From: Nisaea sp.
GTDB lineage: Bacteria > Pseudomonadota > Alphaproteobacteria > Thalassobaculales > Thalassobaculaceae
Direction of reading: 5' to 3'
Assembly: GCF_017640745.1 (NCBI RefSeq)
Contig: NZ_JAEPQA010000015.1
Location: forward strand, 1 to 64,000
DNA: 64,000 bases
The position numbers were made by a program, and so were the translations under genes. The notes beneath the pieces were generated by a model. It was not told where the DNA came from. It was given only the letters and a program-made list of their open reading frames with translations, and searched no databases. Positions 26,568 through 49,027 of this stretch are shown in pieces. Each line of letters opens with the position of its first letter. The first letter of the stretch is position 1.

Positions 26568-26585
26568 AATTTGACGGACATACGA

Positions 26586-27128
26586 ATGAGAGGTGACAAA
26601 ATCGACATCGTGGGACAGATCGACATCCTTAGGAGGTATGCCCGGGTTTTGACCCGGAACGCCTCGGCTGCGGACGATCTTGTCCAGTCGACGTTCTTGC
26701 GGGCACATGAACGAGCTGCGACCTTCCGTCAAGGCGCGGATGAGCGCGTCTGGCTGATGTCGATCCTGCACAACATCTTCATCGACGAACGCCGCAGCGC
26801 GAGGGCGAGCCAGGCCAGAGAACGCGCTTGGATGGACCTTAATCCCGGTTTCAGTGCACCGAGCGGTGAACCGGCCGCAAGGCTGCGACAGATCAGGGAA
26901 GCTTTCCTTTCGCTCTCACAGGAGCAGAGAGAAGCGCTCCATCTGGTTGGCGTGGAAGGGTTTGAACTGGCAGAAGCGGCGAAAATCCTCGGCGTACCGA
27001 CAGGGACCGTCATGTCCCGGGTGGGCCGTGCACGGGAAGCTTTGAGAGATTTCGAGACATCCGGCCGAAAAGGCCTCAAGGCGCGCAGCTTCAAGATCGT
27101 AGGAGGACATAATGAGCGATCAGACTGA
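26586..27128 (+). CDS. ECF-type RNA polymerase sigma factor
   Basis: The protein is about 180 residues from ATG 26586 (a TTG at 26571 is the alternative). Sigma region 2 is seen in the RYARVLTRN and DDLVQSTFLRAHE area with WLMSILHNIFIDERR. Region 4 is LSLSQEQREALHLVGVEGF followed by the helix-turn-helix EAAKILGVPTGTVMSRVGRARE. It overlaps its presumed anti-sigma factor by 17 bases (27112-27128). Target promoters are unknown; there is no NepR/PhyR neighbour, so it is not the general-stress EcfG type. Confidence 0.92.
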   Translation: MRGDKIDIVGQIDILRRYARVLTRNASAADDLVQSTFLRAHERAATFRQGADERVWLMSILHNIFIDERRSARASQARERAWMDLNPGFSAPSGEPAARLRQIREAFLSLSQEQREALHLVGVEGFELAEAAKILGVPTGTVMSRVGRAREALRDFETSGRKGLKARSFKIVGGHNERSD

Positions 27129-27879
27129 GGCTCCGCGTGAAATCGAAGCAGATCTTCTGGCGTTTTTGCAGGGACGGCTCGATGCGGAGCGCGCATATAT
27201 CGTCGCGGACCATCTGGCCGACAATCCGGAGCGCGCGGCGGAAATGCTTGCGGACGCACGGAACATTGAAGGACTGAGGCTGTCGCTATCAGAGCTGGAC
27301 ACGCCCCCGTCCGCAGCGATCCTTGCCGGGGCTCGCCGTCTGGAAGGCCGCCTGCAGAGACGTCACGCGTTGCACCGGTTCGCCCCGATCGCAGCGTCGC
27401 TCTTCATTTTCGCCGCCGGCTGGTCTACCAACACGGTGCTGCAGACTTTCGGAACCGCCAATGCTCATCCACTGATAGAAGCAGCCCTCGACGCTCAGGC
27501 CGCACTGGATCTCCGGCACTGGATGGTCTCGCAGCCTGAAAGCACGGATCTCAACACGGCGGAAATCGTCGGTGCGCTCGGTATTAAATTGCCGGCCCTA
27601 CCCACGGGCTGGATCGTTCGCGATGTCCAGGTTGTGTCTTCGCCCGAGCGCCCGGGCGTTGCAATCGATCTCGACACGCCTGAGTTCGGACGCATACTGC
27701 TATTCGCGATCGCGAGAGATGCAAACGGAAGCGACACCTCGCTCACTGCATTCGACTATCAGGGAAAATCCGTCGCACTCTTCACTAGCGGACGTTCGGC
27801 TTTTGTCCTGGTCGACGAGTCCGGTCATCCGGAACAGATCACGGACGGAGCCAGGCAACTTCTCAGTCTGATGCACTGA
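27112..27879 (+). CDS. Membrane-anchored anti-sigma factor
   Basis: The protein is 255 residues. The N-terminal ~90 residues form the sigma-binding cytoplasmic part (LLAFLQGRLDAERAYIVADHL, an anti-sigma zinc-finger-like helix set without the usual HxxxC). A single transmembrane helix lies about residues 92-106 (FAPIAASLFIFAAGW). The rest is extracytoplasmic. It is translationally coupled to the ECF sigma gene. Signal-dependent proteolysis of such factors usually releases the sigma factor. Confidence 0.85.
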   Translation: MSDQTEAPREIEADLLAFLQGRLDAERAYIVADHLADNPERAAEMLADARNIEGLRLSLSELDTPPSAAILAGARRLEGRLQRRHALHRFAPIAASLFIFAAGWSTNTVLQTFGTANAHPLIEAALDAQAALDLRHWMVSQPESTDLNTAEIVGALGIKLPALPTGWIVRDVQVVSSPERPGVAIDLDTPEFGRILLFAIARDANGSDTSLTAFDYQGKSVALFTSGRSAFVLVDESGHPEQITDGARQLLSLMH

Positions 27880-37530: not shown

Positions 37531-37560
37531 TGATCCGCCTGCCGTCGCCTGCCGTATCGC
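37531..37560 (+). promoter_or_regulatory. Candidate ECF-type promoter TGATCC-N18-TATCGC before photolyase
   Basis: TGATCC at 37531-37536 is followed after exactly 18 bases by TATCGC at 37555-37560. An almost identical arrangement, TGATCC-N18-TAACGC, precedes the DUF6134 operon at 46522-46493. TGATCC is the -35 element I remember for the Rhodobacter RpoE (ChrR) singlet-oxygen regulon. A start at 37587 (TTG) gives a 5' leader of about 20 bases. Confidence 0.55.
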
Positions 37561-37586
37561 CACAGCAGCAAATTACGGGTGGCATT

Positions 37587-39044
37587 TTGTCCGAGAAACC
37601 AATCCTTGTCTGGTTCCGCCAGGACCTGCGGCTTAGCGATAATCCGGCTCTGACGGCCGCTGTGGACTCTGGTGCGCCGGTCCTTCCCGTCTATGTTCTG
37701 GATGACGAAACGCCGGGCAGATGGGCGCCGGGCGGCGCATCGCGCTGGTGGCTGCATCACAGCCTCGCCGCGCTCTCCGAAAGACTTGAAAGGCGCGGCG
37801 CCACGCTGCATCTGGTCCGCTCGAAGAACGCGGCTGAGACCATCCGCACCCTCGCATCCGAGATCGGCGCCGGCGCGGTCCATTGGAACCGCTGCTACGA
37901 GCCGTTCGCCATAGCGCGCGACAAGAATCTGAAACAGGCCCTGAAAAGCGACGGGATCGGAACGGAAAGCTTCAATGCCTCACTTCTGTTCGAACCGTGG
38001 GCAGTGAAAACGAAATCCGGTACGGCCCCGAAGGTTTTCTCGCCCTACTGGCGTGCCCTGCGCGCGCTCGGCGATCCGGCGGAGCCGCTCCCCGCGCCCG
38101 AGCATATCCGTGGCGCCATGGCTTCCACGGAGGGCGAAAAGCTCGAGGACTGGAACCTGTTGCCGACAAAGCCCGACTGGGCATCCGGCTTCAACAAGCA
38201 CTGGAAACCCGGCGAGGCCCACGCCCAGGCCCGGCTGGACTGGTTCCTCGAAACTGCGCTGGAAGACTATAAGGACGGCCGGAACTTCCCGGCGAAGCCC
38301 TACGTATCGCGCCTCTCCCCGCATCTCCATTTCGGCGAGATCGGACCGAGGCAGATCTGGCATCGTACGATCGCCTTTTGCCATGCCGAGGACCGCAATC
38401 CCTTTGCCGGATCGGCGGAGCATTTCCTGAAAGAACTGGTCTGGCGGGAGTTTTCCTACTCCCTGCTCTACCACAATCCGGACCTTCCCGAGGCCTGTCT
38501 GCGCCCGGAGTTCGAGCACTTCCCCTGGGACAGGTCGGACAAGGCGCTAAACGCATGGCAGCGCGGGCAGACCGGGATTCCCATTGTCGATGCCGGCATG
38601 CGCGAACTCTGGCAGACCGGCTACATGCACAACCGGGTGCGGATGATCTGTGCCTCCTTCCTGATCAAGCACCTGATGGTGGACTGGCGCGAGGGCGAAG
38701 CGTGGTTCTGGGACACCCTGCTGGACGCCGATCTCGCGAACAATTCGGCTTCCTGGCAATGGGTGGCCGGATCCGGAGCGGATGCCGCCCCCTATTTCCG
38801 CATCTTCAATCCGGTCCTGCAGGGCGAGAAATTCGATCCGGACGGCGACTATACCCGCCGCTGGGTGCCGGAACTTGCCGACGTGCCCGACCGCTGCCTG
38901 CAAAAGCCCTGGGAAGCGCCCGGAGACCCGGCGCCCGACTATCCTGACCCGATCGTCGATCTCGCCGCCGGTCGCGATCGCGCCCTCGCCGCCTACAAGA
39001 ATCTGGGCGATGCGGAACCCGAAAAGGTAGCCGCGTGGGGTTAA
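37587..39044 (+). CDS. phrB: DNA photolyase (CPD class I, cryptochrome/photolyase family)
   Basis: The protein is about 485 residues from TTG 37587; a GTG at 37530 is possible but lies inside the proposed promoter. It has the N-terminal alpha/beta antenna domain (ILVWFRQDLRLSDNPAL) and C-terminal FAD domain with GIPIVDAGMRELWQTGYMHNRVRMICASFL and DADLANNSASWQWVAGSG. The end has PYFRIFNPVLQGEKFDPDG. These are standard light-dependent repair features. It heads the run leading to the amine-oxidase, CFA-like and GPH genes. Confidence 0.92.
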   Translation: MSEKPILVWFRQDLRLSDNPALTAAVDSGAPVLPVYVLDDETPGRWAPGGASRWWLHHSLAALSERLERRGATLHLVRSKNAAETIRTLASEIGAGAVHWNRCYEPFAIARDKNLKQALKSDGIGTESFNASLLFEPWAVKTKSGTAPKVFSPYWRALRALGDPAEPLPAPEHIRGAMASTEGEKLEDWNLLPTKPDWASGFNKHWKPGEAHAQARLDWFLETALEDYKDGRNFPAKPYVSRLSPHLHFGEIGPRQIWHRTIAFCHAEDRNPFAGSAEHFLKELVWREFSYSLLYHNPDLPEACLRPEFEHFPWDRSDKALNAWQRGQTGIPIVDAGMRELWQTGYMHNRVRMICASFLIKHLMVDWREGEAWFWDTLLDADLANNSASWQWVAGSGADAAPYFRIFNPVLQGEKFDPDGDYTRRWVPELADVPDRCLQKPWEAPGDPAPDYPDPIVDLAAGRDRALAAYKNLGDAEPEKVAAWG

Positions 39045-39108
39045 CCACAGCGAAATGCTGCACATGCCGCACAATTCAGAATAGAGTTTGCCCCGGGGGA
39101 GTGAGTGG

Positions 39109-40455
39109 ATGCGTATAGCTGTTGTCGGAAGCGGAATCGCCGGACTCGGCGCGGCTTGGCTGTTGTCATCGCGCTATCAGGTGACCGTCTACGAAGCCAA
39201 TGATCGACTGGGCGGACACAGCAATACGGTAACCGTCGATTACGACGGCCAGGCTGTTCCCGTCGATACCGGCTTCATTGTCTACAACGAGGCGACCTAC
39301 CCGAACCTGATCGGAATGTTCGACTGGCTCGGCGTCAGGACCAAGCCGAGCGACATGTCCTTCAGCGTCTCGGTCGGCGATGGCGCGCTCGAGTACGAGG
39401 GCTCGCTCCGGGGGCTCGTCGCCCAGCCGACGAACCTCCTGAAACCCGGCTATTACCGGATGCTGGCCGACGTCGCCCGATTCTTCGCAGCGGCTCCACG
39501 CCTTCTTGACGAACCGCACGACCCGGACATCACTCTCGGCGCCTTCCTGGAGCGCGAGGGATACGGCGACGGATTTCTCTACGATCATCTCTTGCCGATG
39601 GCGGCCGCGATCTGGTCCTGTCCGGTCGAGACCATGCTCGCCTTCCCGGCCCGCAGCTTTGTTCGTTTCTTCGTCAATCACGGCCTTCTGAAACATATGA
39701 ACCGGCCGCAATGGTTCACCGTCGACGGCGGCTCGCAGAGCTATGTGCGCCGGCTTGCGGAAGAGATCGAACAACGCGGCGGTCAGATCCGTATCGGCCA
39801 TCCGGTACGCGAGATTCGCCGCCTCGAGAGCGGCGTCATGGTGAAGGAGCCGGACGGTTCGGAGACCTTCTACGACCAGATCGTGATCGGCGCCCATGGC
39901 GACGAGGCACTCTCCATGCTGAGCGATGCGGACAGCGCTGAGCGCAATCTGCTCGGCTGCTTCAGCTATCAGGACAATGTCGCGGTGCTCCACCGGGACC
40001 GCAGCCTGATGCCGAGAAGGCGTGCGGCCTGGGCCTCCTGGAACTATCTCGCCGAGGGCCGGCGGAACATGGACCGGGCCGTCGCACTCACCTACTGGAT
40101 GAACCGCCTCCAGAGCATCGACGAAGGACTGCCGCTCTTTGTCACAATGAATCCGCTGCGCGAGCCGGATCCCGCGCTTGAGTTCGCGCGCTTCAACTAT
40201 ACCCATCCGGTCTTCGACAGCGCCGCCGTGCGTGCGCAGTCCGATCTCGGAACCATACAAGGTAGCCGCAATACCTGGTTCTGCGGCAGCTACTGCGGCT
40301 ATGGCTTTCATGAGGACGGCCTCAAAGCCGCGATCGCCGTTGCGCGCGGTCTAGGGATCACGGTTCCCTGGAACACCACGGTCGAGCCCGCGAGCCAGAT
40401 TTGGCTGGCGCGGCAGAATTCCGAAGCAGCGGCACTTGCGACGGGAGACGATTGA
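39109..40455 (+). CDS. FAD-dependent, flavin amine oxidase-like oxidoreductase of the photolyase-CFA operon
   Basis: The protein is 448 residues from ATG 39109, with GGGGGAGTG upstream. The Rossmann motif is VVGSGIAGLGAAWLL, and LGGHSNTV is the second nucleotide contact. It matches the COG2907-type NAD/FAD-binding proteins usually followed by DUF1365 and a CFA-like gene. In Rhodobacter such genes lie in a singlet-oxygen-responsive operon and have been linked to fatty-acid modification. The reaction is not established here. It begins 64 bases after the photolyase stop. Confidence 0.88.
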   Translation: MRIAVVGSGIAGLGAAWLLSSRYQVTVYEANDRLGGHSNTVTVDYDGQAVPVDTGFIVYNEATYPNLIGMFDWLGVRTKPSDMSFSVSVGDGALEYEGSLRGLVAQPTNLLKPGYYRMLADVARFFAAAPRLLDEPHDPDITLGAFLEREGYGDGFLYDHLLPMAAAIWSCPVETMLAFPARSFVRFFVNHGLLKHMNRPQWFTVDGGSQSYVRRLAEEIEQRGGQIRIGHPVREIRRLESGVMVKEPDGSETFYDQIVIGAHGDEALSMLSDADSAERNLLGCFSYQDNVAVLHRDRSLMPRRRAAWASWNYLAEGRRNMDRAVALTYWMNRLQSIDEGLPLFVTMNPLREPDPALEFARFNYTHPVFDSAAVRAQSDLGTIQGSRNTWFCGSYCGYGFHEDGLKAAIAVARGLGITVPWNTTVEPASQIWLARQNSEAAALATGDD

Positions 40456-40456
40456 G

Positions 40457-41281
40457 ATGGACGACGGGGCAGAACGGATCGCCTCCGCATCCTGCCTCTA
40501 TCGCGGGGCGGTCATGCATGCGCGCCTGCTGCCTTTCCGGCACCGCTTCGTCTACCGCGTGTTCTCGATGCTGGTGGATCTCGACGAGCTCGACGAGCTT
40601 TCCTCCGGGTTGCGCTTCTTCTCGCGCAACCGCTTCAACCTGTTCTCCTATTTCGACCGGGACCACGGCAGCCGCGACGGCATGCCGGTGGCGGGCTGGG
40701 TCCGCGCCCAGCTCCAGGCCGCAGGCTTCGAATCGGGCGAAGGTCGCATTACATCACATTGTTTTCCAAGAATTCTCGGTTTCGTCTTCAACCCGCTGAC
40801 GATCTACTTCTGTCACCACCGGGACGGGCACCTGCAGGCAGTTCTCTATGAGGTGAAGAACACGTTCGGACAGCAGCATTGCTACCTGATCCCCGTCGAG
40901 GACGCGCACGAATCCGAGAGCGCGATCCTGCAGAGCTGCGACAAAGGCTTCTACGTTTCGCCTTTCATGGAGATGAAATCGACCTACCGCTTCCGGCTGA
41001 AGGAACCCGGCGAGAAACTCTCGATCCTGATCCGTCAGGAAACACCGGCCGGAGAGACTCTGATCGCGACCCATACGGGGCGCCGAGAGACGCTCACCGA
41101 CGGCTCGATCCTGAAGATGGCAGCCCTCTATCCGCTCCTCACTCTGAAGGTCGTCACCGGGATCCATTGGGAGGCTCTGAAGCTTTGGGTCAAGGGCGCG
41201 GTCTTCCATGAGAGGCCGGCCGAGCCGGAAAATGCCGTAACCGTGATCGGCAAATCATCCGCCGGGCGGCATGCAGCGTAA
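40457..41281 (+). CDS. DUF1365 family protein
   Basis: The protein is 274 residues from ATG 40457, one base after the oxidoreductase stop. It begins with SCLYRGAVMHARLLPFRHRFVYRVFSM and has LFSYFDRDHG, NPLTIYFCHH and EVKNTFGQQHCYL motifs that define DUF1365. The family occurs with FAD oxidoreductase and CFA-like genes and is thought to act in the same lipid modification; its chemistry is unknown. It has no clear transmembrane helix except a short stretch at the C-terminal third (MAALYPLLTLKVVTG). Confidence 0.9.
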   Translation: MDDGAERIASASCLYRGAVMHARLLPFRHRFVYRVFSMLVDLDELDELSSGLRFFSRNRFNLFSYFDRDHGSRDGMPVAGWVRAQLQAAGFESGEGRITSHCFPRILGFVFNPLTIYFCHHRDGHLQAVLYEVKNTFGQQHCYLIPVEDAHESESAILQSCDKGFYVSPFMEMKSTYRFRLKEPGEKLSILIRQETPAGETLIATHTGRRETLTDGSILKMAALYPLLTLKVVTGIHWEALKLWVKGAVFHERPAEPENAVTVIGKSSAGRHAA

Positions 41282-41311
41282 GCAAGAAGATTGAGAATGG
41301 GGCGAGCTGGA

Positions 41312-42553
41312 ATGACTGATCAAAAGACGGCCGACTATCCGCTTCCGATGACCGGCCTGAGACCGAAACGAACCGACATGCTGATGCCGTGGACCCGGGC
41401 CCTGCTCATCATGTTGAGGGCAGTGCGGATCGGCACGCTGACCGTGCATGCGCCCAATGGCGAGAGCTATCGCTTCGAAGGCCAGACTCCCGGCCCCCAC
41501 GCGGAAGTCAGACTTTCCTCCGACGATGTCAGCCGGAAGCTTCTGCTCGGCGGCGACGTGCGCTTCGGCGAAGCCTACATGGAAGGCGGCTGGGATACCC
41601 CAGATCTCCCCGCCCTGATCGAATTCGGCGCGCAGAACCAGCGCGCCCTCTCCCGCGCCATCGACGGTACCCGCATCGGGCGTTTCTTCAAGTCGCTGCA
41701 GCATTTCGCCAACCGCAACACGAAACGCGGCAGCCGGCGCAACATCGCGCACCATTACGACATCGGGAACGCGTTCTACGGCAAGTGGCTCGACCCGAGC
41801 ATGACCTATTCGGCCGCCGTCTTCGAGGCGGGCGAGGAAGACCTGGAGCCGGCGCAAAGGCGCAAGTACCGGCGGATCGCGGACATGCTGCGCCTCGAGC
41901 CCGGCCAGACCGTGCTGGAGATCGGCTGTGGCTGGGGCGGCTTTGCCTCGGTCGCGGCGCGCGAATACGGCGCCCGGGTGGTCGGCCTGACGCTTTCCCA
42001 GGAACAGCACGATTACGCCATCGAGCGCGCGAAGCGCGAGGGCATCTCCGACAAGGTCTCGATCCAGCTCTGCGACTACCGCGACGTGGACGGACGCTTC
42101 GATCATATCGCCTCGATCGAGATGTTCGAGGCGGTCGGCGAGAAGTACTGGCCGACCTTTTTCGATCAGGTCCGCGCACGTTTGACAGACACGGGCCATG
42201 CCGCGATGCAGATCATCACCATCGACGACGAGGGCTTCGAGACCTACCGGAGAAACCCCGACTTCATTCAGAAATACATCTTCCCGGGCGGCATGCTGCC
42301 CTCTGTCGGCAAACTGACCGAGCACATTGAAGCCTCGGGCCTCGAATGTTTCGCCAATGACGGGTTCGGCAGCCACTATGCGCGCACCCTCGCCATGTGG
42401 CGGGAACGCTTCCACGCGCGCTGGCACGAGATCGCCCCACTCGGCTTCGACGAACGCTTCCGGCGGATGTGGGACTATTACCTCTGCTATTGCGAGGGTG
42501 GCTTCCGCGCGGGCCATATCGATGTCCGGCAGATCGCGCTGAAGCACGCGTGA
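41312..42553 (+). CDS. CFA-synthase-like SAM-dependent fatty-acyl methyltransferase with altered active site
   Basis: The protein is about 413 residues from ATG 41312. The SAM-binding motif is EIGCGWGG (203-210) and E273 (MFEAVGEKYW) matches the catalytic Glu of E. coli Cfa. Two other Cfa active-site residues differ: the Cys of YSC is Ala (Y166-S167-A168-A169) and the His of the LHTIG motif is Gln (Q300 in MQIITI). C139 and H266 in E. coli Cfa line the bicarbonate site. This suggests methyl transfer without ring closure, as in the methyltransferase of furan fatty acid synthesis, rather than a standard cyclopropane synthase. Operon context agrees. Confidence 0.88.
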   Translation: MTDQKTADYPLPMTGLRPKRTDMLMPWTRALLIMLRAVRIGTLTVHAPNGESYRFEGQTPGPHAEVRLSSDDVSRKLLLGGDVRFGEAYMEGGWDTPDLPALIEFGAQNQRALSRAIDGTRIGRFFKSLQHFANRNTKRGSRRNIAHHYDIGNAFYGKWLDPSMTYSAAVFEAGEEDLEPAQRRKYRRIADMLRLEPGQTVLEIGCGWGGFASVAAREYGARVVGLTLSQEQHDYAIERAKREGISDKVSIQLCDYRDVDGRFDHIASIEMFEAVGEKYWPTFFDQVRARLTDTGHAAMQIITIDDEGFETYRRNPDFIQKYIFPGGMLPSVGKLTEHIEASGLECFANDGFGSHYARTLAMWRERFHARWHEIAPLGFDERFRRMWDYYLCYCEGGFRAGHIDVRQIALKHA

Positions 42554-42557
42554 GGGC

Positions 42558-43928
42558 ATGACGGCAGAAACCGCTGCTTCGCCCTTCTCGCGGCTGAAGC
42601 TCCTCGCCTACGGCTTTCCCGGGCTGCCCCTCGCCGCGCTCGGCGTTCCGCTCTTCATCTTCCTGCCGTCCTTCTACGCGCAGGACCGGGGGCTCAGTCT
42701 TGCCGCGGTCGGTCTCGTCCTGCTGGCGGCCAGGCTCTGGGATGCGGTCACGGATCCTGTCATCGGCCTGCTGAGCGACCGGATCGCGACCCGGTTCGGC
42801 CGCCGCAAACCCTGGATCCTCGCCGGTACCCCGCTGACCTGCCTTGCCGTCTATATGCTCTTCGTTCCGCCGGACGGTGCCGGCGTGCTCCATCTCTTCG
42901 CCTGGAGCGCGGTGCTCTATCTCGGCTGGACCATGGTGCAGCTGCCCTATACGGCTTGGGGCGCCGAGCTCTCCGGCGACTATCACGAGCGCTCCCGGAT
43001 CACCGCGTTCCGCGAAACAATGGTTGTGTTCGGCACTTTGCTGGCCTCCGGCATGCCAGCCGCGATCGCGGCCTCCGGCGGCCAAAATGATCTGGGTGAG
43101 GTCCTCACGGCGCTCGCCGTTTTCCTGATCCTCGCCTTACCGCTTTCGGTTCTGCTGGCGGCAGGGCTGGTCGCGGAAACACCTCCGGGACCAGCCCCGG
43201 TTCGAAAGACGGTGGATAACTGGCGTGCCGGCGCCGCCCTGCTCATCCGCAACAAGCCCTTTCTGCGCCTGATCCTCTCGTATCTGCTGAACGGGCTGGC
43301 CAACGGGCTGGCGGCGACCCTCTTCGTCCTGTTCGTCCAGAAGGGTCTCGCCTTGCCGGAGGCCGTCGACACGCTCCTGCTCACTTACTTCCTGCTAGGC
43401 ATCGCGGGTGTGCCGCTCTGGCTCTTCGTGAGCCACCGGCTCGGAAAGCACCGGACCTGGATCGTCGCAATGCTGCTGAACAGCGCGATCTTCGCCACCG
43501 TGCCGCTGCTCGGACCCGGCGACTATTTCGCCTTCCTCGCCATCTGTGTCGGCACCGGCCTCTGTCTCGGCGCCGATCTCGTGCTGCCGCCCTCGATGCA
43601 GGCCGACGTTGTCGATGTCGATACAGCCGAGGGCGGAGGCGCGCGCACCGGGCTCTATTTCGCGCTCTGGGGCATGGCGACAAAACTCGCACTGGCGCTC
43701 GCCGTCGGCATCGCCTTTCCGGTGCTGGAGATAGCCGGGTTCGATGCCGCGGGCGAGAACGACGCCGAAGCTCTTCTCACGCTCTCCCTGCTCTACGGCG
43801 CCGCACCGGTGGTCCTGAAGCTCGCGGCCATCGCAATCATGCGCGGCTTTCCGGTCACCGCCGAGAAGCAGGCCGAGCTGCGCCGGAAAATCGACCTGAA
43901 ATCCGCAGAAACCAGTCCCGGGAGTTGA
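42558..43928 (+). CDS. GPH/MelB-type MFS transporter of the photolyase-CFA operon
   Basis: The protein is 456 residues with about twelve transmembrane helices. The early loop DRIATRFGRRKPWILAGTPL is the GPH-family (sugar:cation symporter) signature, and VQLPYTAWGAELSGDYHERSRITAFRE is typical of its second half. The position between a lipid-modification methyltransferase and a DUF3833 lipoprotein, and similar order in Rhodobacter, suggest a lipid-related role rather than sugar uptake. It starts 4 bases after the methyltransferase stop. Confidence 0.9.
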   Translation: MTAETAASPFSRLKLLAYGFPGLPLAALGVPLFIFLPSFYAQDRGLSLAAVGLVLLAARLWDAVTDPVIGLLSDRIATRFGRRKPWILAGTPLTCLAVYMLFVPPDGAGVLHLFAWSAVLYLGWTMVQLPYTAWGAELSGDYHERSRITAFRETMVVFGTLLASGMPAAIAASGGQNDLGEVLTALAVFLILALPLSVLLAAGLVAETPPGPAPVRKTVDNWRAGAALLIRNKPFLRLILSYLLNGLANGLAATLFVLFVQKGLALPEAVDTLLLTYFLLGIAGVPLWLFVSHRLGKHRTWIVAMLLNSAIFATVPLLGPGDYFAFLAICVGTGLCLGADLVLPPSMQADVVDVDTAEGGGARTGLYFALWGMATKLALALAVGIAFPVLEIAGFDAAGENDAEALLTLSLLYGAAPVVLKLAAIAIMRGFPVTAEKQAELRRKIDLKSAETSPGS

Positions 43929-43931
43929 TCC

Positions 43932-44504
43932 ATGATCCGCCGTCTTCCGTACATTCTAGTGGTTCTCCTGACCCTCGGAGCCTGCTCGAACATGCAGATC
44001 GAAGATTTCGCCGGAACCGGACCGGAACTGAAACCCGAAGAGTATTTCGCGGGCCAGACCAAGGCCTGGGGAATCTTCGAGGACCGGTTCGGCAACCTGA
44101 AACGGGAGTTCCTCGTCGACATCAAGGGCGACTGGGATGGGACCACGCTGACGCTAACCGAGGATTTCAACTATAGCGACGGCGAAAAGGAGCAGCGTAT
44201 CTGGCACATTATGAAGTCCGGAGACGGGCTCTATGAAGGCCGCGCCGACGACGTGGTCGGTGTCGCCAAGGGTGTTGCCAGAGGCAAAGCCCTCAACTGG
44301 TCCTACGACCTGATGCTAAAGGTCGGGGACAACACGATCAAGGTGCGGTTCGACGACTGGATGTTCCTGCAGCCCGGCGGGGTGATGATCAACAAGGCCG
44401 AAGTCTCGAAATTCGGCATCACCATCGGCACCGTCACCCTGTTCTTCGCCAAGAATGCGGTCAATCGCACGGGATCATTCGGCGGGCGTAAATCGGCGGC
44501 CTAG
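43932..44504 (+). CDS. DUF3833 lipoprotein
   Basis: The protein is 190 residues. The signal peptide ends in a lipobox LGAC at about residues 15-18, so the mature protein is membrane-tethered by Cys18. The DUF3833 pattern is visible: EDFAGTGPELKPEEYFAGQTKAWGIFEDRFG and WIMKSGDG-type IWHIMKSGDGLYEG. It begins 3 bases after the GPH transporter stop. Its 3' end overlaps the convergent NTF2-like gene by 30 bases. Confidence 0.9.
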   Translation: MIRRLPYILVVLLTLGACSNMQIEDFAGTGPELKPEEYFAGQTKAWGIFEDRFGNLKREFLVDIKGDWDGTTLTLTEDFNYSDGEKEQRIWHIMKSGDGLYEGRADDVVGVAKGVARGKALNWSYDLMLKVGDNTIKVRFDDWMFLQPGGVMINKAEVSKFGITIGTVTLFFAKNAVNRTGSFGGRKSAA

Positions 44505-44918
44505 CCAGCGGAGCACCGGCCCCAGAACGGGCACCAGCCCGAACACCTGCGAGGCGGCGTCCCAGTGGTCGATATGGCTGGAGACGAGGCCGTCATCGTC
44601 GAATTCGATCTCGCTCAGGCCGACGATCTCGATCTCCCGGTCCCCGGCCGCCTTCACCCGTCCGGTCATGCGCCATTTGAGATAGCAGGCCCTCTCTCCG
44701 GAAACCCGGTCGAGCACTTCGAAAGCCGGCGCGTCCATCGCCTCGAACATATGCCTGAAGATCGCAATGACCTTGCCGCGCCCGGTGACATCGCTGAACG
44801 GGTCCCTGAAACGGACATTCTCAGCGAGCAACGCGGCAAGCGCTCCGAGGTTTTGTTCCGTCAGCGTCTCGTAGCAGCGGGCATAGGCCGCCAGCCGATC
44901 TTCAGCCAATCCTGTCAC
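44475..44918 (-). CDS. NTF2/SnoaL-like protein
   Basis: The protein is 147 residues. NTF2-like features: an N-terminal helix (YARCYETLTEQNLGALAALL), the strand FRDPFSDVTGRGKV, and DDDGLVSSHIDHWDAASQVF with the His-Asp-Trp typical of polyketide cyclase-like members. Small NTF2 proteins are commonly found with SDR and DUF6134/CFA genes in this kind of cluster. It is translationally coupled (four-base overlap) to the upstream SDR. It overlaps the convergent DUF3833 gene. Confidence 0.88.
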   Translation of the reverse strand: MTGLAEDRLAAYARCYETLTEQNLGALAALLAENVRFRDPFSDVTGRGKVIAIFRHMFEAMDAPAFEVLDRVSGERACYLKWRMTGRVKAAGDREIEIVGLSEIEFDDDGLVSSHIDHWDAASQVFGLVPVLGPVLRWLGRRFTPAE

Positions 44919-45664
44919 TTGCCCGTGCCCCGCTTCACCAGCCCGAAATAGAGACTGTATGGCAAAGCGTTCAAGAGCTTGAGAATGATCGCGAAACGGC
45001 GCGGAAAGGTAATTTCGAACCGATCGGACTGCAGGCCCTTGTAGAACGCTTCCGCGGCGTCCTCCGGCTCCATCAGGAACGGCATCGGGAACGGGTTCCT
45101 GTCTGTCAGCGGCGTCCGGACGAAGCCCGGGCAGACCAGCTGGGTCTTCACGCCATATCGGTCGAGATCGAACTTCAGCGCCGCCGTCATGTTATTGAGC
45201 GCGGCCTTTGTGCCACCGTAGGCTGCCGCCGTCGGCAGCCCGCCATAACCCGCGACGGAGGACACCACGGCGATGTGGCCCTTGCGGGCAGAGATGAAGC
45301 CGGGCACGACGGCCGCGAGACAGTTCACCACGCCCATCAGATTGACCTCGAGCAAGGTCCGGAACGGCTTCGTCTCGAGTTCCTCGATCTCGACCGGCAG
45401 GTGAGTTCCTGCCGCAAGGACCGCCAAGTCGAGACGACCCCGCTCTTCACGAATGCGCGCCACGGTCTCCTTCGCCGCCGCCTCGTCCGTCACGTCGAGC
45501 GGATAGGCGAAGAATTTTTCCGGGTGCCGCTTTTCCAGTTCCGCCATCGCCTCTGCGGACCGCGCCGAACCAGCGACGGTCCAGCCGTCCCGCATCATGC
45601 GTTCGGCCAGCGCAAGACCGATCCCGGAACTGGCACCGGTGATCCAGACACAGCGCGCGCTCAT
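44915..45664 (-). CDS. SDR-family oxidoreductase of the photolyase-associated cluster
   Basis: The protein is 249 residues. The cofactor loop is TGASSGIGLALA, and the catalytic set is Ser in VVSSVAGYGG with Tyr/Lys in AAAYGGTKAALNN (a canonical YxxxK). C-terminal PFPMPFLMEPEDAAEAFY marks the classical class. Both ends overlap neighbours by four bases, indicating one operon DUF6134-SDR-NTF2. Substrate unknown. Confidence 0.9.
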   Translation of the reverse strand: MSARCVWITGASSGIGLALAERMMRDGWTVAGSARSAEAMAELEKRHPEKFFAYPLDVTDEAAAKETVARIREERGRLDLAVLAAGTHLPVEIEELETKPFRTLLEVNLMGVVNCLAAVVPGFISARKGHIAVVSSVAGYGGLPTAAAYGGTKAALNNMTAALKFDLDRYGVKTQLVCPGFVRTPLTDRNPFPMPFLMEPEDAAEAFYKGLQSDRFEITFPRRFAIILKLLNALPYSLYFGLVKRGTGK

Positions 45665-46437
45665 TCGAGGTCCTCCAGCACGACCCGGACGGTCTCGGAA
45701 CCCGCACTCTTCACCGCGTCCAGCTCGATGAAGCGGTCCCTGTCCCCTGCGCGTGGCGCGACGCGGACATATTCGAACGCGGCACCGTCATGCACGAAGG
45801 TCATTTTCACCCACTCGCCGTTACGGCCGTACCAGATGTCGAGGTCCAGCTCGCCCCGCATCCGGTAATGCAGAGCGTCGATTTCCCTACCTTCCGCAAG
45901 GATGGTCTCCTGACCGACCTCGGTCATGGTAATGTTCCGCAGCCGCCCGTATTGCAGGTCGATCAGCTTGGTCGCGTCCGTCAGGGCGAAATTCCAGTAG
46001 GTCGACGGAACCGACTCGCCGGGTGGCGCCACATGCTCCCCCTCGCGCCCGGAAAAGCGGAACCCTTCCGGGGCGGACTCACCGTCGACGATAAAGACAT
46101 CTCCGTCGTCATTCACCACTCCGCGGGCGCGCAGAAGCTTGTTCCCGTCCCACTCGTCCTGCGCCCGCAGAGCGTAGTAATAGAGCGTAAACGGCCCTAT
46201 TCTGAAATCGAATAATGTCTGTGTATCAACAAGATATTTTCCGTCTTTGATGTCAAATCTTAACATGACGACACCAAGCGGATCGCCCTCGCGATAGACC
46301 TTGAACTTGATCAGCCCATCCTCCGCCCAGCCCTTCGGAACGAGACTGGACGCGGTGACGGCGTTGGGCAGCAGGAGGCCCGTAAGGATCAGCGCCGGTG
46401 CGATCAGCGCCAGCAAGCGGGCGCAAAACGGTTTCAT
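45661..46437 (-). CDS. DUF6134 family secreted protein
   Basis: The protein is 258 residues with a Sec signal peptide (MKPFCARLLALIAPALILTG, cleavage near VTASS). The rest is a beta-rich periplasmic domain (WAEDGLIKFKVYREGDPLG at the start, RMRGELDLDIWYGRNGEWVKM near the end) that matches DUF6134. The family accompanies CFA-like/SDR genes in oxidative-stress operons. It leads a three-gene operon and has the second TGATCC-N18-TAWCGC element 56 bases upstream. Confidence 0.82.
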   Translation of the reverse strand: MKPFCARLLALIAPALILTGLLLPNAVTASSLVPKGWAEDGLIKFKVYREGDPLGVVMLRFDIKDGKYLVDTQTLFDFRIGPFTLYYYALRAQDEWDGNKLLRARGVVNDDGDVFIVDGESAPEGFRFSGREGEHVAPPGESVPSTYWNFALTDATKLIDLQYGRLRNITMTEVGQETILAEGREIDALHYRMRGELDLDIWYGRNGEWVKMTFVHDGAAFEYVRVAPRAGDRDRFIELDAVKSAGSETVRVVLEDLE

Positions 46438-46492
46438 CTTTCCATCCCAGCATGCGAGGCCGGATGAGGTCGCATCCGAACCAGCCTATCCT

Positions 46493-46522
46493 GCGTTACG
46501 GCGGCAGCAGGGAACCGGATCA
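46493..46522 (-). promoter_or_regulatory. Candidate ECF-type promoter TGATCC-N18-TAACGC before the DUF6134 operon
   Basis: On the minus strand TGATCC (46522-46517) and TAACGC (46498-46493) are separated by exactly 18 bases. This is the same arrangement as before the photolyase gene and lies 56 bases from the DUF6134 start. Shared elements on two convergent operons point to joint control by one sigma factor, probably an RpoE/ChrR-like ECF factor outside the window. Confidence 0.55.
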
Positions 46523-46600: not shown

Positions 46601-47113
46601 GTGCACAAGCCCGACGAAAGCTTTCCGAGTCCGGACCACGATCACGGCCAATGCCTCGACGACGCGCTGAGCGCGGCCGAGCGGCTTTGCGCGGAGCGTG
46701 GCGCCCGCATCACGCCGGCCCGCCGCCGCGTGCTGGAACTGGTCTGGCAGCGCCATGCGCCGGTCGGCGCCTACGATATCCTCTCTGAGATGCAGAAAGA
46801 CGCGGACCGGGACGGCAAGGCGAGCACCAAGATCGCCCCGCCGACCGTCTACCGGGCGCTTGAGTTCCTGATGGAGCAGGGGCTCGTGCACAAGGTCGAG
46901 TCGCAGAATGCCTATATCGGCTGCAGCCATCCCGAGGCGGGCCACGATTGCGGGTTCCTGATCTGCCGGGAGTGCGGCGCCGCGCTCGAGGTCGAGGACG
47001 AGGAACTGAGCGCTCTGCTCACCGCCCTCGCCCGACGTCACGGCTTCAAGGCAGAGGAAAGCACGGTGGAGATCAAGGGGCTGTGTCCTGCCTGCAAATC
47101 GGCCGCGGCCTGA
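46601..47113 (+). CDS. zur: Fur-family zinc uptake regulator (Zur)
   Basis: The protein is 170 residues from GTG 46601, the first in-frame start after the Zur box. The winged-helix DNA-binding part has ITPARRRVLELVWQRHAPVGAYDIL and PPTVYRALEFLMEQGLVHKVES. The dimerisation domain has His/Glu ligands and two CxxC pairs (CRECG and CPAC), which bind structural zinc in Fur proteins. The immediate downstream znuC and CobW genes indicate zinc rather than iron sensing. A His-rich N-terminal PDHDHGQ may add metal binding. Confidence 0.88.
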   Translation: MHKPDESFPSPDHDHGQCLDDALSAAERLCAERGARITPARRRVLELVWQRHAPVGAYDILSEMQKDADRDGKASTKIAPPTVYRALEFLMEQGLVHKVESQNAYIGCSHPEAGHDCGFLICRECGAALEVEDEELSALLTALARRHGFKAEESTVEIKGLCPACKSAAA

Positions 47114-47116
47114 ATC

Positions 47117-47902
47117 ATGCTCGACAGGACATCGCCGCTTCTCGACATCGCGAACCTCAGCATCGACCATAACGGCCGTGCGGTTCTGCAGGATGTCAGC
47201 TTCGCCCTTGGACGGGGCGAGATCATCAGCGTGATCGGCCCGAACGGCGGCGGCAAGACCACCCTGCTTCGGGCCATCCTCGGCCTGGTGCGCCCGGGCA
47301 GCGGCAGCGTGACGCTCGCCGCCGGCACGAGCATCGGCTACGTGCCGCAAAAACTCGCGATCGACGCGACCATGCCGCTCACCCCGCGCCGCTTCCTGAC
47401 CCTCGGCATGAAGGGCGTGCGCGGACGCGTCGCGGAGGTCGCGGAGCGGACCGGGATCAGCCACCTGCTCGACCGCCAGCTTGCCGCGCTTTCCGGCGGC
47501 GAGACCCAGCGGGTCCTCCTCGCCCGCGCGATCCTGAAAAAACCGTCCCTCCTGGTGCTCGACGAGCCGACCCAGGGCATGGACGTCGCCGCGCAGTCGG
47601 AACTGTTCCGGCTGATCGAGGCGATCCGGGCCGAAACCGGCGCCGCGGTGATCATGGTCTCGCACGACCTGCATCTCGTGATGCGCGGCACCGACCGGGT
47701 GCTCTGCCTCAACGGCCATATCTGCTGCACCGGCCATCCGGCGGAGGTCGAACGCGACCCGAGTTTCCGCTCGCTCTTCGGACGCTTGGACGAAGCGGCC
47801 GTCGTGCCCTATCGTCACGACCACGACCACACGCATGACGGCGCCTGCGATCACAACCACGACCATGGGCACGATCACGGGCATCACCACCACCATCATT
47901 GA
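47117..47902 (+). CDS. znuC: Zinc ABC transporter ATP-binding protein ZnuC
   Basis: The protein is 261 residues. Walker A GPNGGGKTT, signature LSGGETQR, Walker B LLVLDEPTQGMD and H-loop VSHDLH are intact. A His-rich C-terminal tail (HDHDHTHDGACDHNHDHGHD and a final run of His) is well suited to zinc binding. It is preceded by zur (3-base gap). The usual partners znuA and znuB are not in the window. Confidence 0.93.
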   Translation: MLDRTSPLLDIANLSIDHNGRAVLQDVSFALGRGEIISVIGPNGGGKTTLLRAILGLVRPGSGSVTLAAGTSIGYVPQKLAIDATMPLTPRRFLTLGMKGVRGRVAEVAERTGISHLLDRQLAALSGGETQRVLLARAILKKPSLLVLDEPTQGMDVAAQSELFRLIEAIRAETGAAVIMVSHDLHLVMRGTDRVLCLNGHICCTGHPAEVERDPSFRSLFGRLDEAAVVPYRHDHDHTHDGACDHNHDHGHDHGHHHHHH

Positions 47903-47929
47903 CCAACCCACGCCAGAACGGGCGGAACC

Positions 47930-49027
47930 ATGACCGATACGACCAGCGAACCGGACCGGCTTCCGGTCTCCATCCTCACCGGCTTCCTCGGCAGCGGGAA
48001 AACCACCCTGCTCTCGAAACTGATGCGCCACCCGGAGATGGACCGCATCGCCGTCATCGTGAACGAATTCGGCGAGGTCGGGCTCGACGACGCGCTTGTG
48101 ATGGAGTCGAACGAGGACGTGGTGCTGCTGAACAGCGGCTGCCTCTGCTGCACCGTGCGTGGCGATCTGGTGGACACGCTGAAGCGACTGTTCAAGGACC
48201 GCGCGAAAGGCCTGATCCCGGACTTCGACCGCATTGTGGTCGAGACCACCGGCCTCGCCGATCCGGCGCCGATCCTGCACACGATGATGGCAGATCCGTT
48301 CCTGGTCACGCGCTTCCGCCTCGACGGGGTGATCACGGTGGTCGACGCGCACCATGCGATGGAGCAGTTCGACAAGCAGTTCGAGAGCGTGAAACAGGCC
48401 GCCGTCGCCGACCGTATCGTGCTGACCAAGACGGACGTTACCGACGCCGAGCAGGTCGCGAAGGTCGAGGCACGGCTCGCGGAACTCAATCCGGCGGCGC
48501 CGGTGATCAAGGCCGTGCAGGGTGACGTGTCCCCGTCCGTGCTCTTCAACGCCGGGCTCTACAATCCGAAAACCAAGAGCACCGACGTCTCCCAATGGCT
48601 CCGCGAGGAGGCCTACCGGGCGACCGAAGGCCATGTGCATCACCACGACCATCATCATGATCACGGCCACGATCATGACCACGGGCACCATCATCACGAT
48701 GTGAGCCGGCACGACGATCATATCCATTCCTTCGTGCTCTATTTCGACGAGCCGCTGGAGTGGAACCGGATCGCCGGCGCGCTCGACATGATGGCGCAGA
48801 CCCACGGCGCGAATATCCTGCGCATCAAGGGTCTGCTGAACCTGAAGGAACTGGAAGACGAGCCGGTCGTGGTCCATGCCGTGCAGCACATGTTCCATCC
48901 GCCGGCCAAGATCGAGAAATGGCCAAACGAGGACCGCCGCTCCCGCCTCGTCTTCATCGTCCGCGACCTCGACAAGAAGACAATCGAGAGCGTGATGAAC
49001 TCCTATCTCGCCCTCGAATTCGCATGA
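47930..49027 (+). CDS. CobW-family GTP-binding metallochaperone (zinc-regulated type)
   Basis: The protein is 365 residues. The G1 loop is GFLGSGKTT, the switch region has NEFGEVGLDDAL, the metal motif is GCLCC (CxCC) in NSGCLCCTVRGDL, and the G4-like NKxD element is TKTD. A His-rich segment links the GTPase and CobW-C domains. In zinc-limited bacteria, Zur-controlled CobW/ZNG1-type GTPases move zinc to essential enzymes. It follows znuC by 28 bases and overlaps the next gene by four bases. Confidence 0.93.
   Translation: MTDTTSEPDRLPVSILTGFLGSGKTTLLSKLMRHPEMDRIAVIVNEFGEVGLDDALVMESNEDVVLLNSGCLCCTVRGDLVDTLKRLFKDRAKGLIPDFDRIVVETTGLADPAPILHTMMADPFLVTRFRLDGVITVVDAHHAMEQFDKQFESVKQAAVADRIVLTKTDVTDAEQVAKVEARLAELNPAAPVIKAVQGDVSPSVLFNAGLYNPKTKSTDVSQWLREEAYRATEGHVHHHDHHHDHGHDHDHGHHHHDVSRHDDHIHSFVLYFDEPLEWNRIAGALDMMAQTHGANILRIKGLLNLKELEDEPVVVHAVQHMFHPPAKIEKWPNEDRRSRLVFIVRDLDKKTIESVMNSYLALEFA

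What the first reader, a model, noticed from the sequence alone, without database searches (positions are those of the whole stretch)
37531..46522. Two convergent operons share a TGATCC-N18-TAWCGC element
TGATCC-N18-TATCGC lies before the photolyase gene (37531-37560) and TGATCC-N18-TAACGC lies before the DUF6134-SDR-NTF2 operon (46522-46493, minus strand). Both have identical -35 hexamers, identical 18-base spacing and a TAWCGC -10 region, and both sit 20-60 bases from a start codon. The -35 resembles that of the Rhodobacter RpoE-ChrR singlet-oxygen regulon. The enclosed genes (photolyase, FAD oxidoreductase, DUF1365, CFA-like methyltransferase, GPH transporter, DUF3833) match that regulon's contents. 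No ChrR-like anti-sigma gene is in the window. The ECF pair at 26.6-27.9 kb is of a different type.
Basis: partly seen in the sequence, partly recalled or inferred. Interest (0 to 1): 0.75.

Follow-up and report, generated by a model that had tools for sequence, protein, structure and literature searches.

The report
Singlet-oxygen stress regulon with zinc-less ChrR
The two shared promoter elements are real and almost certainly switch on a known bacterial singlet-oxygen defence programme; the surprise lies elsewhere in the genome, where the protein that should hold this switch off has lost the zinc site that others proposed as its oxygen sensor.

Summary
Both elements are present and have the form of ECF11 (RpoE-ChrR) promoters, better written TGATCC-N16-CGTAW. 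In relatives the spacing is sharply selected upstream of both operons (29 of 56 and 19 of 34 loci at one spacing, at most 2 at any other). Before the furan-fatty-acid (ufa) operon the motif is found only in genomes where chrR was found (29 of 43 against 0 of 11). The window is from the genus Nisaea. Its genome has rpoE-chrR on another contig with the same promoter and a second rpoH with one. The genes are the R. sphaeroides photolyase and furan-fatty-acid set in two convergent units. Additions: (1) a third site overlapping the DUF3833 start; (2) DUF6134 as a new regulon candidate; (3) in 5 of 5 Nisaea genomes ChrR lacks all four zinc ligands of its anti-sigma domain but keeps the cupin H-H-E-H site. 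That zinc finger is a proposed singlet-oxygen sensor whose role is debated, so Nisaea offers a natural test. No expression data were available. The promoter class is known; the zinc-less switch is a new variant.

The parts
37531..37556 (+). ECF11-type promoter TGATCC-N16-CGTA of the photolyase-ufa operon (-35 at 37531-37536, -10 from 37553); expected 5' end about 37564-37566
   Evidence: same site in 5 of 5 Nisaea genomes
37587..39044 (+). photolyase-family protein (counterpart of RSP_2143); subclass not settled, no NCBIfam model over its cut-off
   Evidence: PF03441/PF00875; the TTG start at 37587 is my reading
39109..40455 (+). FAD amine-oxidase-type protein, UfaD-like (counterpart of RSP_1091)
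   Evidence: PF01593; role from PMC7380195 passages
40481..41281 (+). DUF1365 protein, UfaO-like (counterpart of RSP_1090)
   Evidence: PF07103 274.8 bits
41291..42553 (+). CFA-synthase-like SAM methyltransferase, UfaM-like (counterpart of RSP_2144)
   Evidence: PF02353
42558..43928 (+). GPH/MFS_2-type transporter (counterpart of RSP_1089)
   Evidence: PF13347
43926..43951 (+). third ECF11-type site TGATCC-N16-CGTA, overlapping the GPH stop and the first seven codons of DUF3833; expected 5' end about 43959-43961
   Evidence: in 12 of 12 loci of genera g1, g2, g5 and g12 in which DUF3833 was detected
43932..44504 (+). DUF3833 lipoprotein (counterpart of RSP_1088)
   Evidence: PF12915; lipobox LGAC read by eye
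44475..44918 (-). SnoaL/NTF2-like protein, last gene of the convergent operon
   Evidence: PF12680
44915..45664 (-). short-chain dehydrogenase (counterpart of RSP_1087)
   Evidence: PF00106
45661..46437 (-). DUF6134, apparently secreted beta-barrel-like protein, first gene of the convergent operon
   Evidence: PF19630; model pLDDT 88.6, best solved match 6ntr EipB/DUF1849; signal peptide judged by eye
46497..46522 (-). ECF11-type promoter TGATCC-N16-CGTA of the DUF6134-SDR-NTF2 operon; expected 5' end about 46489-46487

Best explanation
The two elements, a third inside the operon, and the promoters of rpoE-chrR and of a second rpoH elsewhere in the genome are targets of one ECF11 sigma factor, RpoE, held inactive by ChrR. 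Singlet oxygen or organic peroxides release RpoE, which transcribes photolyase, the furan-fatty-acid enzymes UfaD/UfaO/UfaM, the transporter and the DUF3833 lipoprotein from one strand, and DUF6134, an SDR and an NTF2-like protein from the other. RpoE also transcribes its own operon and the second rpoH. Shown by sequence: the sites, their exact spacing, their conservation, their tie to chrR, the regulator and its own promoter, and the loss of the anti-sigma-domain zinc ligands in Nisaea ChrR. Inferred: that RpoE is the factor that reads the sites, the inducer, the product of the Ufa enzymes in this genus, and that the zinc-less ChrR still inhibits RpoE.
For: Two exact matches against zero expected. 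Spacing scan: TGATC-N17-CGTA in 29 of 56 ufa and 19 of 34 DUF6134 upstream regions, 0-2 at each of 15 other spacings. Motif before the ufa unit in 29 of 43 chrR+ and 0 of 11 chrR- genomes (p=4.7e-5); 28 of 36 and 0 of 8 among genomes at least 90% complete. rpoE-chrR in the same genome: ChrR 175 bits against a cut-off of 124.5; best PDB matches are 2z2s/2q1z, the solved ChrR-RpoE complexes. Motif before rpoE in 5 of 5 Nisaea genomes and 44 bases before the start of the same rpoH-type gene in 5 of 5 (the sigma-32 family was tested only for the window's own copy, the others share its N-terminus). Same promoter form in P. syringae by ChIP-seq and in S. oneidensis with mapped start sites. Gene content matches the R. 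sphaeroides targets RSP_2143-2144 and RSP_1091-1087.
Against: No expression data. 14 of 43 chrR+ genomes lack a strict match before the ufa unit and 11 of 30 before DUF6134; in the titled loci 11 of 36 with chrR in the locus lack it before ufa and 6 of 12 before DUF6134. The DUF6134 tie to chrR rests on only 4 chrR- genomes (p=0.03; p=0.10 among genomes at least 90% complete, 2 of them chrR-). Counts are not corrected for kinship. PMC5507510 reports P. fluorescens strains with the motif before phrB but no such sigma factor. The reversed-pattern control (58 sites against 3 over five genomes) is lenient because it contains CTAG, which I recall to be rare in bacteria; the spacing control is fairer. 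Other ECF sigmas of this genome were not surveyed.
Confidence: 0.93

Rival explanations
1. Another ECF sigma factor, such as the pair at 26.6-27.9 kb in the window, reads these promoters.
For: The pair is close by and is a genuine ECF sigma (NF009164, 206.3 bits, cut-off 185). Motif-bearing phrB genes without an ECF11 sigma are reported in P. fluorescens.
Against: The same motif precedes rpoE itself in 5 of 5 Nisaea genomes, and it is absent before ufa in all 11 testable chrR- genomes.
Confidence: 0.04
2. Zinc-less ChrR no longer inhibits RpoE, so the regulon is constitutively on in Nisaea and the locus is regulated in name only.
For: In R. sphaeroides zinc binding by the ChrR anti-sigma domain is needed to inhibit RpoE (PMC6852236 section 10). 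All four ligands are absent here.
Against: The anti-sigma domain stays conserved among Nisaea species (66-100% identity, against 36-87% in the linker). Sigma-binding domains of this class without zinc are known (PMC7406223 passages; RseA). The cupin ligands are kept in 21 of 21 sequences without the finger.
Confidence: 0.2
3. The third site at the DUF3833 start is a by-product of coding sequence and not a promoter.
For: It overlaps a start codon, so a transcript from it would lack the DUF3833 start and lipoprotein signal. ChIP-seq in P. syringae found 54 of 87 motif peaks inside coding regions.
Against: 12 of 12 loci in four genera in which DUF3833 was detected keep both boxes, while the residue before Tyr varies among P, A, S and T (always NCG). 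In other genera an equivalent site lies in the transporter's last codons: of 44 distinct segments 11 have TGATC and all 11 have CGTA at the right spacing; of the 33 without TGATC, 10 have Val at that place and none uses GTA, although GTA is 8.9% of Val codons in these genes. Related genomes share descent, so these are not independent counts.
Confidence: 0.35

Closest known systems
Rhodobacter sphaeroides RpoE(sigmaE)-ChrR regulon (ECF11)
   Same: Promoter form; rpoE-chrR; photolyase, UfaM, UfaD, UfaO, GPH transporter, RSP_1088 and SDR counterparts; an additional rpoH under the same promoter.
   Different: Photolyase and furan-fatty-acid genes are fused in one operon; the SDR is moved to a convergent unit with DUF6134 and an NTF2-like gene; rpoE-chrR lies apart; ChrR lacks the anti-sigma-domain zinc ligands; apparent non-phototroph.
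Pseudomonas syringae PSPTO_1043/1042 and Shewanella oneidensis RpoE2-ChrR
   Same: TGATCC-N16-CGTA-type promoters before the sigma gene and before the photolyase/cfa cluster (one base off in the P. syringae phrB site).
   Different: Different extended regulons; DUF6134 was not among the members in the passages that I saw.
Brucella EipB (DUF1849), solved as 6ntr
   Same: DUF6134's model gives 6ntr as best Foldseek match (E 2.7e-6, TM 0.51); EipB is periplasmic and DUF6134 looks secreted.
   Different: 10% identity over the alignment, a modest TM-score, other gene neighbourhood; function of both uncertain.
ZAS zinc-binding anti-sigma factors (ChrR, RsrA, RslA)
   Same: ChrR family model, domain order and cupin zinc ligands.
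   Different: The H/C-X24/25-H-X3-C-X2-C motif that defines ZAS is gone in Nisaea ChrR.

Membership tests
ECF11 (RpoE-ChrR) promoter | TGATCC, 16-base spacer, CGTA | tested here: met
ECF11 (RpoE-ChrR) promoter | cognate rpoE-chrR in the same genome, itself preceded by the motif | tested here: met
ECF11 (RpoE-ChrR) promoter | motif absent where the sigma/anti-sigma pair is absent | tested here: met
   0 of 11 chrR- genomes before ufa; for DUF6134 0 of 4, too few to weigh
ECF11 (RpoE-ChrR) promoter | transcription depends on RpoE and is induced by singlet oxygen | not testable with these tools
   no expression data
core RpoE-ChrR regulon | photolyase, UfaM, UfaD, UfaO, RSP_1088 and RSP_1087 counterparts under the motif | tested here: met
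   family; lists; correspondence by family, length and role, not by tree
furan fatty acid pathway | UfaM, UfaD and UfaO make 9M5-FuFA | not testable with these tools
   families present; product not assayed
ChrR family (TIGR02451) | score over the curated cut-off | tested here: met
   175 bits against 124.5
ZAS zinc-binding anti-sigma factors | H/C-X24/25-H-X3-C-X2-C in the anti-sigma domain | tested here: not met
   Nisaea residues Q/D/M, Q/M, R, L at the four places, 5 of 5 genomes
ChrR cupin-like domain | H-H-E-H zinc ligands | tested here: met
EipB/LolA-like fold (DUF6134) | confident structural match | tested here: inconclusive
   6ntr TM 0.51; LolA/LolB only at E 0.06 and above

The most novel reading that the evidence does not exclude
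In Nisaea, and apparently by further losses in other Alphaproteobacteria, ChrR controls a complete RpoE regulon without any anti-sigma-domain zinc. The zinc finger is then neither the obligatory singlet-oxygen sensor nor needed for inhibition, and sensing runs through the conserved cupin site and/or furan-fatty-acid breakdown. A linked bold reading: the internal site at the DUF3833 start makes an RpoE-dependent short transcript whose next in-frame ATG (43992, after GGAG at 43977) would yield a non-lipidated, cytoplasmic DUF3833.
Probability: 0.45. Interest if true: 0.75.

Novelty: new variant of a known kind. Interest (0 to 1): 0.55.

Why it matters
How ChrR senses singlet oxygen is open: one proposal puts the chemistry at the anti-sigma-domain zinc finger, perhaps together with the cupin domain (PMC6432622 passages), another stresses the cupin domain and a furan-fatty-acid signal (PMC6852236 sections 12-13). 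A genus that lost every ligand of the finger yet kept the cupin site, the FuFA genes, the promoter before rpoE and the one before rpoH separates the two by natural variation. It also adds DUF6134, a name found in no paper of the held library, and a possible internal promoter to a well-studied regulon.

Tried and rejected
Reading the element as N18-TAWCGC: rejected, because relatives conserve CGTA two bases earlier, and the third genomic N18-TAACGC copy (C66:75748) lacks CG and lies inside a reading frame that looks by eye like a transporter permease.

Counting reversed patterns as the main control: kept only as a side result, because the reversed pattern contains CTAG; the spacing scan replaced it.

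Other own-genome matches: of 10 TGATCC-N16-CGTA sites, seven fit a promoter or internal promoter (rpoE, phr, DUF6134, rpoH, DUF2256, an EAL protein, the DUF3833 site). C11 lies inside a reading frame that I recognise as RseP-like, and C12 and C52 lie against reading frames on the other strand; I treat those three as probable chance. DUF2256 recurs in 2 of 5 Nisaea genomes; for the EAL site I saw no similar spacer in the list.

Weak UfaO hits (10 genomes at E of 4e-41 or weaker) were fetched and kept in the counts; all 55 UfaO+ genomes are in them. One locus (L151, G022) was dropped because only 11 bases of upstream sequence were available; one search had counted it as chrR-, motif-. In one search L192 and L203 were dropped for the same reason.

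One-mismatch sites: they exist in five chrR+ regions that lack a strict site, but also in one chrR- genome and at some control spacings, so I do not count them as evidence.

Between-genus identity figures for the motif columns are 100% by construction, since rows were chosen by the motif; the fair statement is 12 of 12 loci with DUF3833 detected in those four genera. G005 (g2) showed no DUF3833 and is not in the 12. The peptide pattern missed at least two further loci with a site in the transporter (L151, L250).
Full report
What was checked first. The stated distances to starts are right if the photolyase begins at the TTG at 37587 and DUF6134 at the ATG at 46437.

Genes. Pfam gives, on the + strand from 36852: a metallophosphatase (PdeM by NCBIfam), photolyase, FAD amine-oxidase-type protein, DUF1365, CFA-like methyltransferase, GPH-type transporter and DUF3833; on the - strand: DUF6134, SDR and SnoaL/NTF2-like. 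In R. sphaeroides the RpoE targets include RSP_2143-2144 (photolyase, cfaS=UfaM) and RSP_1091-1087 (UfaD, UfaO, GPH symporter, RSP_1088, SDR), by passages and tables of PMC7380195 and PMC7074977 and section 17 of PMC5507510. So seven of the nine genes in the two operons are counterparts of known targets, merged and split in a different way; DUF6134 and the NTF2-like gene are additions. I infer correspondence from family, length and role, not from a tree.

Promoter form. Twenty operon regions of relatives were read first, then 35 more: 56 loci with the window, covering all 55 genomes of 98 with a UfaO hit. TGATC-N17-CGTA (that is TGATCC-N16-CGTA) is found upstream of the ufa unit in 29 of 56 and upstream of DUF6134 in 19 of 34; every other spacing from 10 to 25 gives 0-2. 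On the opposite strand of the ufa regions the same spacing gives 16 loci, all 16 with rpoE in the locus, as expected of divergent rpoE promoters. The known ECF11 form is the same: TGATCCn16CGTA in P. syringae (ChIP-seq, section 17 read), TGATCC and CGTATT/CGTAAT in S. oneidensis with mapped starts (passages).

Regulator. The genome holds one ChrR over the family cut-off, at C7:44499, right after an ECF sigma gene; best solved matches are the ChrR and RpoE chains of 2z2s/2q1z. Two weaker cupin matches were not pursued. TGATCC-N16-CGTATC lies before rpoE, and all five Nisaea genomes have the motif there, one with TGATCT. A further site lies 44 bases before the start of an rpoH-type gene in 5 of 5 genomes, a second rpoH besides one over the family cut-off (NF005693 389.9 bits for the window's copy). 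R. sphaeroides has the same cascade to RpoHII (section 15 of PMC6852236). The genus was read from a contig of identical length titled Nisaea nitritireducens DSM 19540, belonging to a genome of the same genus. No reaction-centre gene was found in 5 of 5 genomes.

Motif against chrR. Per genome, the motif precedes the ufa unit in 29 of 43 with chrR and 0 of 11 without; at 90% completeness or more, 28 of 36 and 0 of 8 (p=7e-5). For DUF6134: 19 of 30 and 0 of 4 (p=0.03); 18 of 25 and 0 of 2 (p=0.10). Against the reading: 14 and 11 chrR+ genomes lack a strict site. Five of those regions hold a one-mismatch site at the right spacing (G050, G069, G077 for ufa; G063, G092 for DUF6134), but so does one chrR- genome, G025, and some control spacings do as well.

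Titled loci. Of the 78 with enough upstream sequence, the motif precedes the ufa unit in 25 of 36 loci that also hold chrR, in 10 of 20 other loci without chrR nearby (chrR may lie elsewhere there), and in 0 of 22 Pelagibacter-type loci, none of which shows chrR within reach. Before DUF6134 it is found in 6 of 12 and 1 of 4 loci. Thalassospira and Kordiimonas show it at both operons.

Third site. TGATCC-N16-CGTA at 43926-43951 spans the transporter stop and the DUF3833 start. All 12 loci of genera g1, g2, g5 and g12 in which DUF3833 was detected carry it. The codon before Tyr is always NCG while its residue varies among P, A, S and T. In other genera a site sits in the transporter's C-terminal codons: of 44 distinct segments found by peptide pattern (one spurious pattern hit in L163 left out), 11 have TGATC and all 11 have CGTA at the right spacing; 33 have neither, and of the 10 of these with Val at that place none uses GTA, which is 8.9% of Val codons in these genes. 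I read this as an internal promoter for DUF3833 with moderate confidence. In Nisaea it would start a transcript after the normal start codon; GGAG at 43977 and an in-frame ATG at 43992 could give a form without the lipoprotein signal. That Met is common in the family even where the site is elsewhere, so this is speculation.

DUF6134. No paper of the held library contains the name. A model from the window protein and 15 relatives has pLDDT 88.6 and pTM 0.81. Best solved match is Brucella EipB/DUF1849, 6ntr (E 2.7e-6, TM 0.51); a sperm-axoneme chain and VioE also pass E 0.001, and LolA and LolB appear only at E of 0.06 and above. A review likens EipB's barrel to LolA/LolB and calls its role unsettled (passages of PMC10787603). 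A role in carrying or clearing membrane lipids is my inference.

Zinc-less ChrR. Aligned to 2z2s_B, the window genome's ChrR has Q36, R40 and L43 at the places of H31, C35 and C38, and Q11 at that of H6 by extension of the alignment and. The numbers H6, H31, C35, C38, H141 and H143 are partly recalled; E147 and H177 are. Of 92 ChrR reading frames in hand, 80 remained after identical cores were removed: 59 keep H-C-C at these three places (all 59 also H6), 21 do not, and all 21 keep the cupin H-H-E-H; of the 59, one has H-H-E-D and one shows no cupin part. The five Nisaea genomes read QQRL, QQRL, DQRL, MMRL and MMRL. On a tree of 79 built from residue 46 onward (so without the zinc-site columns), the label needs at least 8 changes; well-supported branches alone force 2, and Nisaea is one fully supported clade (quick method, many weak forks). 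The anti-sigma domain is still conserved in Nisaea (66-100% identity, linker 36-87%, cupin part 75-97%), and 17 of the 21 zinc-less loci keep a motif within 2 kb upstream; of the 4 without, L109 starts at a contig end. The sample is what was fetched here, not a random survey.

Meaning. In R. sphaeroides zinc in this domain is needed for inhibition (section 10 of PMC6852236), its role in the response is called unknown (section 13) or under debate, and a model peptide reacts fast with singlet oxygen (passages of PMC6432622). Cupin residues Glu147 and His177 are needed for the response (section 12). Zinc-free domains of this class are known and mixed with zinc-binding ones (passages of PMC7406223), so loss need not mean loss of inhibition. 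In three searches aimed at zinc-less ChrR or at Nisaea with ChrR no listed title or abstract start reports either; I did not read all listed papers, and the library holds open-licence papers only. Dufour 2008, which defined the core regulon, was not available and not read.

Verdict. The new parts are the zinc-less ChrR behind an intact set of promoters, DUF6134 as a regulon candidate, and the internal DUF3833 site.

Noticed in passing
window 46691-49027; loci L081, L082, L148, L149, L072, L188: Zinc-homeostasis genes (Zur, with ZnuC and/or a CobW GTPase) lie beside the DUF6134 operon in Nisaea and several other genera, next to a regulon whose ChrR lost a zinc site in Nisaea.
   Followed up: no
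L220, L258; probably L147, L201, L217: A ChrR-like gene with its own TGATC-N17-CGTA site close upstream and no rpoE detected between them (distance measured only for L220 and L258).
   Followed up: no
L272:1281-1466 (-) and L303: DUF2256 gene preceded by TGATCC-N16-CGTA in 2 of 5 Nisaea genomes; in L272 a photolyase-related PF04244 gene lies close by.
   Followed up: partly
L266:1501-2618: EAL-domain protein whose ATG lies 53 bases after the start of a TGATCC-N16-CGTATCC site, with a ribosome-site-like stretch between.
   Followed up: partly
window 26571-27879: ECF sigma (NF009164) with a partner protein that hits no NCBIfam model and looks membrane-anchored by eye; not of the ChrR type.
   Followed up: partly
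22 Pelagibacter-type loci between L218 and L264: SAR11 genomes carry UfaD-UfaO-UfaM-DUF3833 and an SDR with no chrR nearby and no same-strand motif before the unit (0 of 22; one opposite-strand match in L263), so the genes exist there apparently without this control.
   Followed up: no
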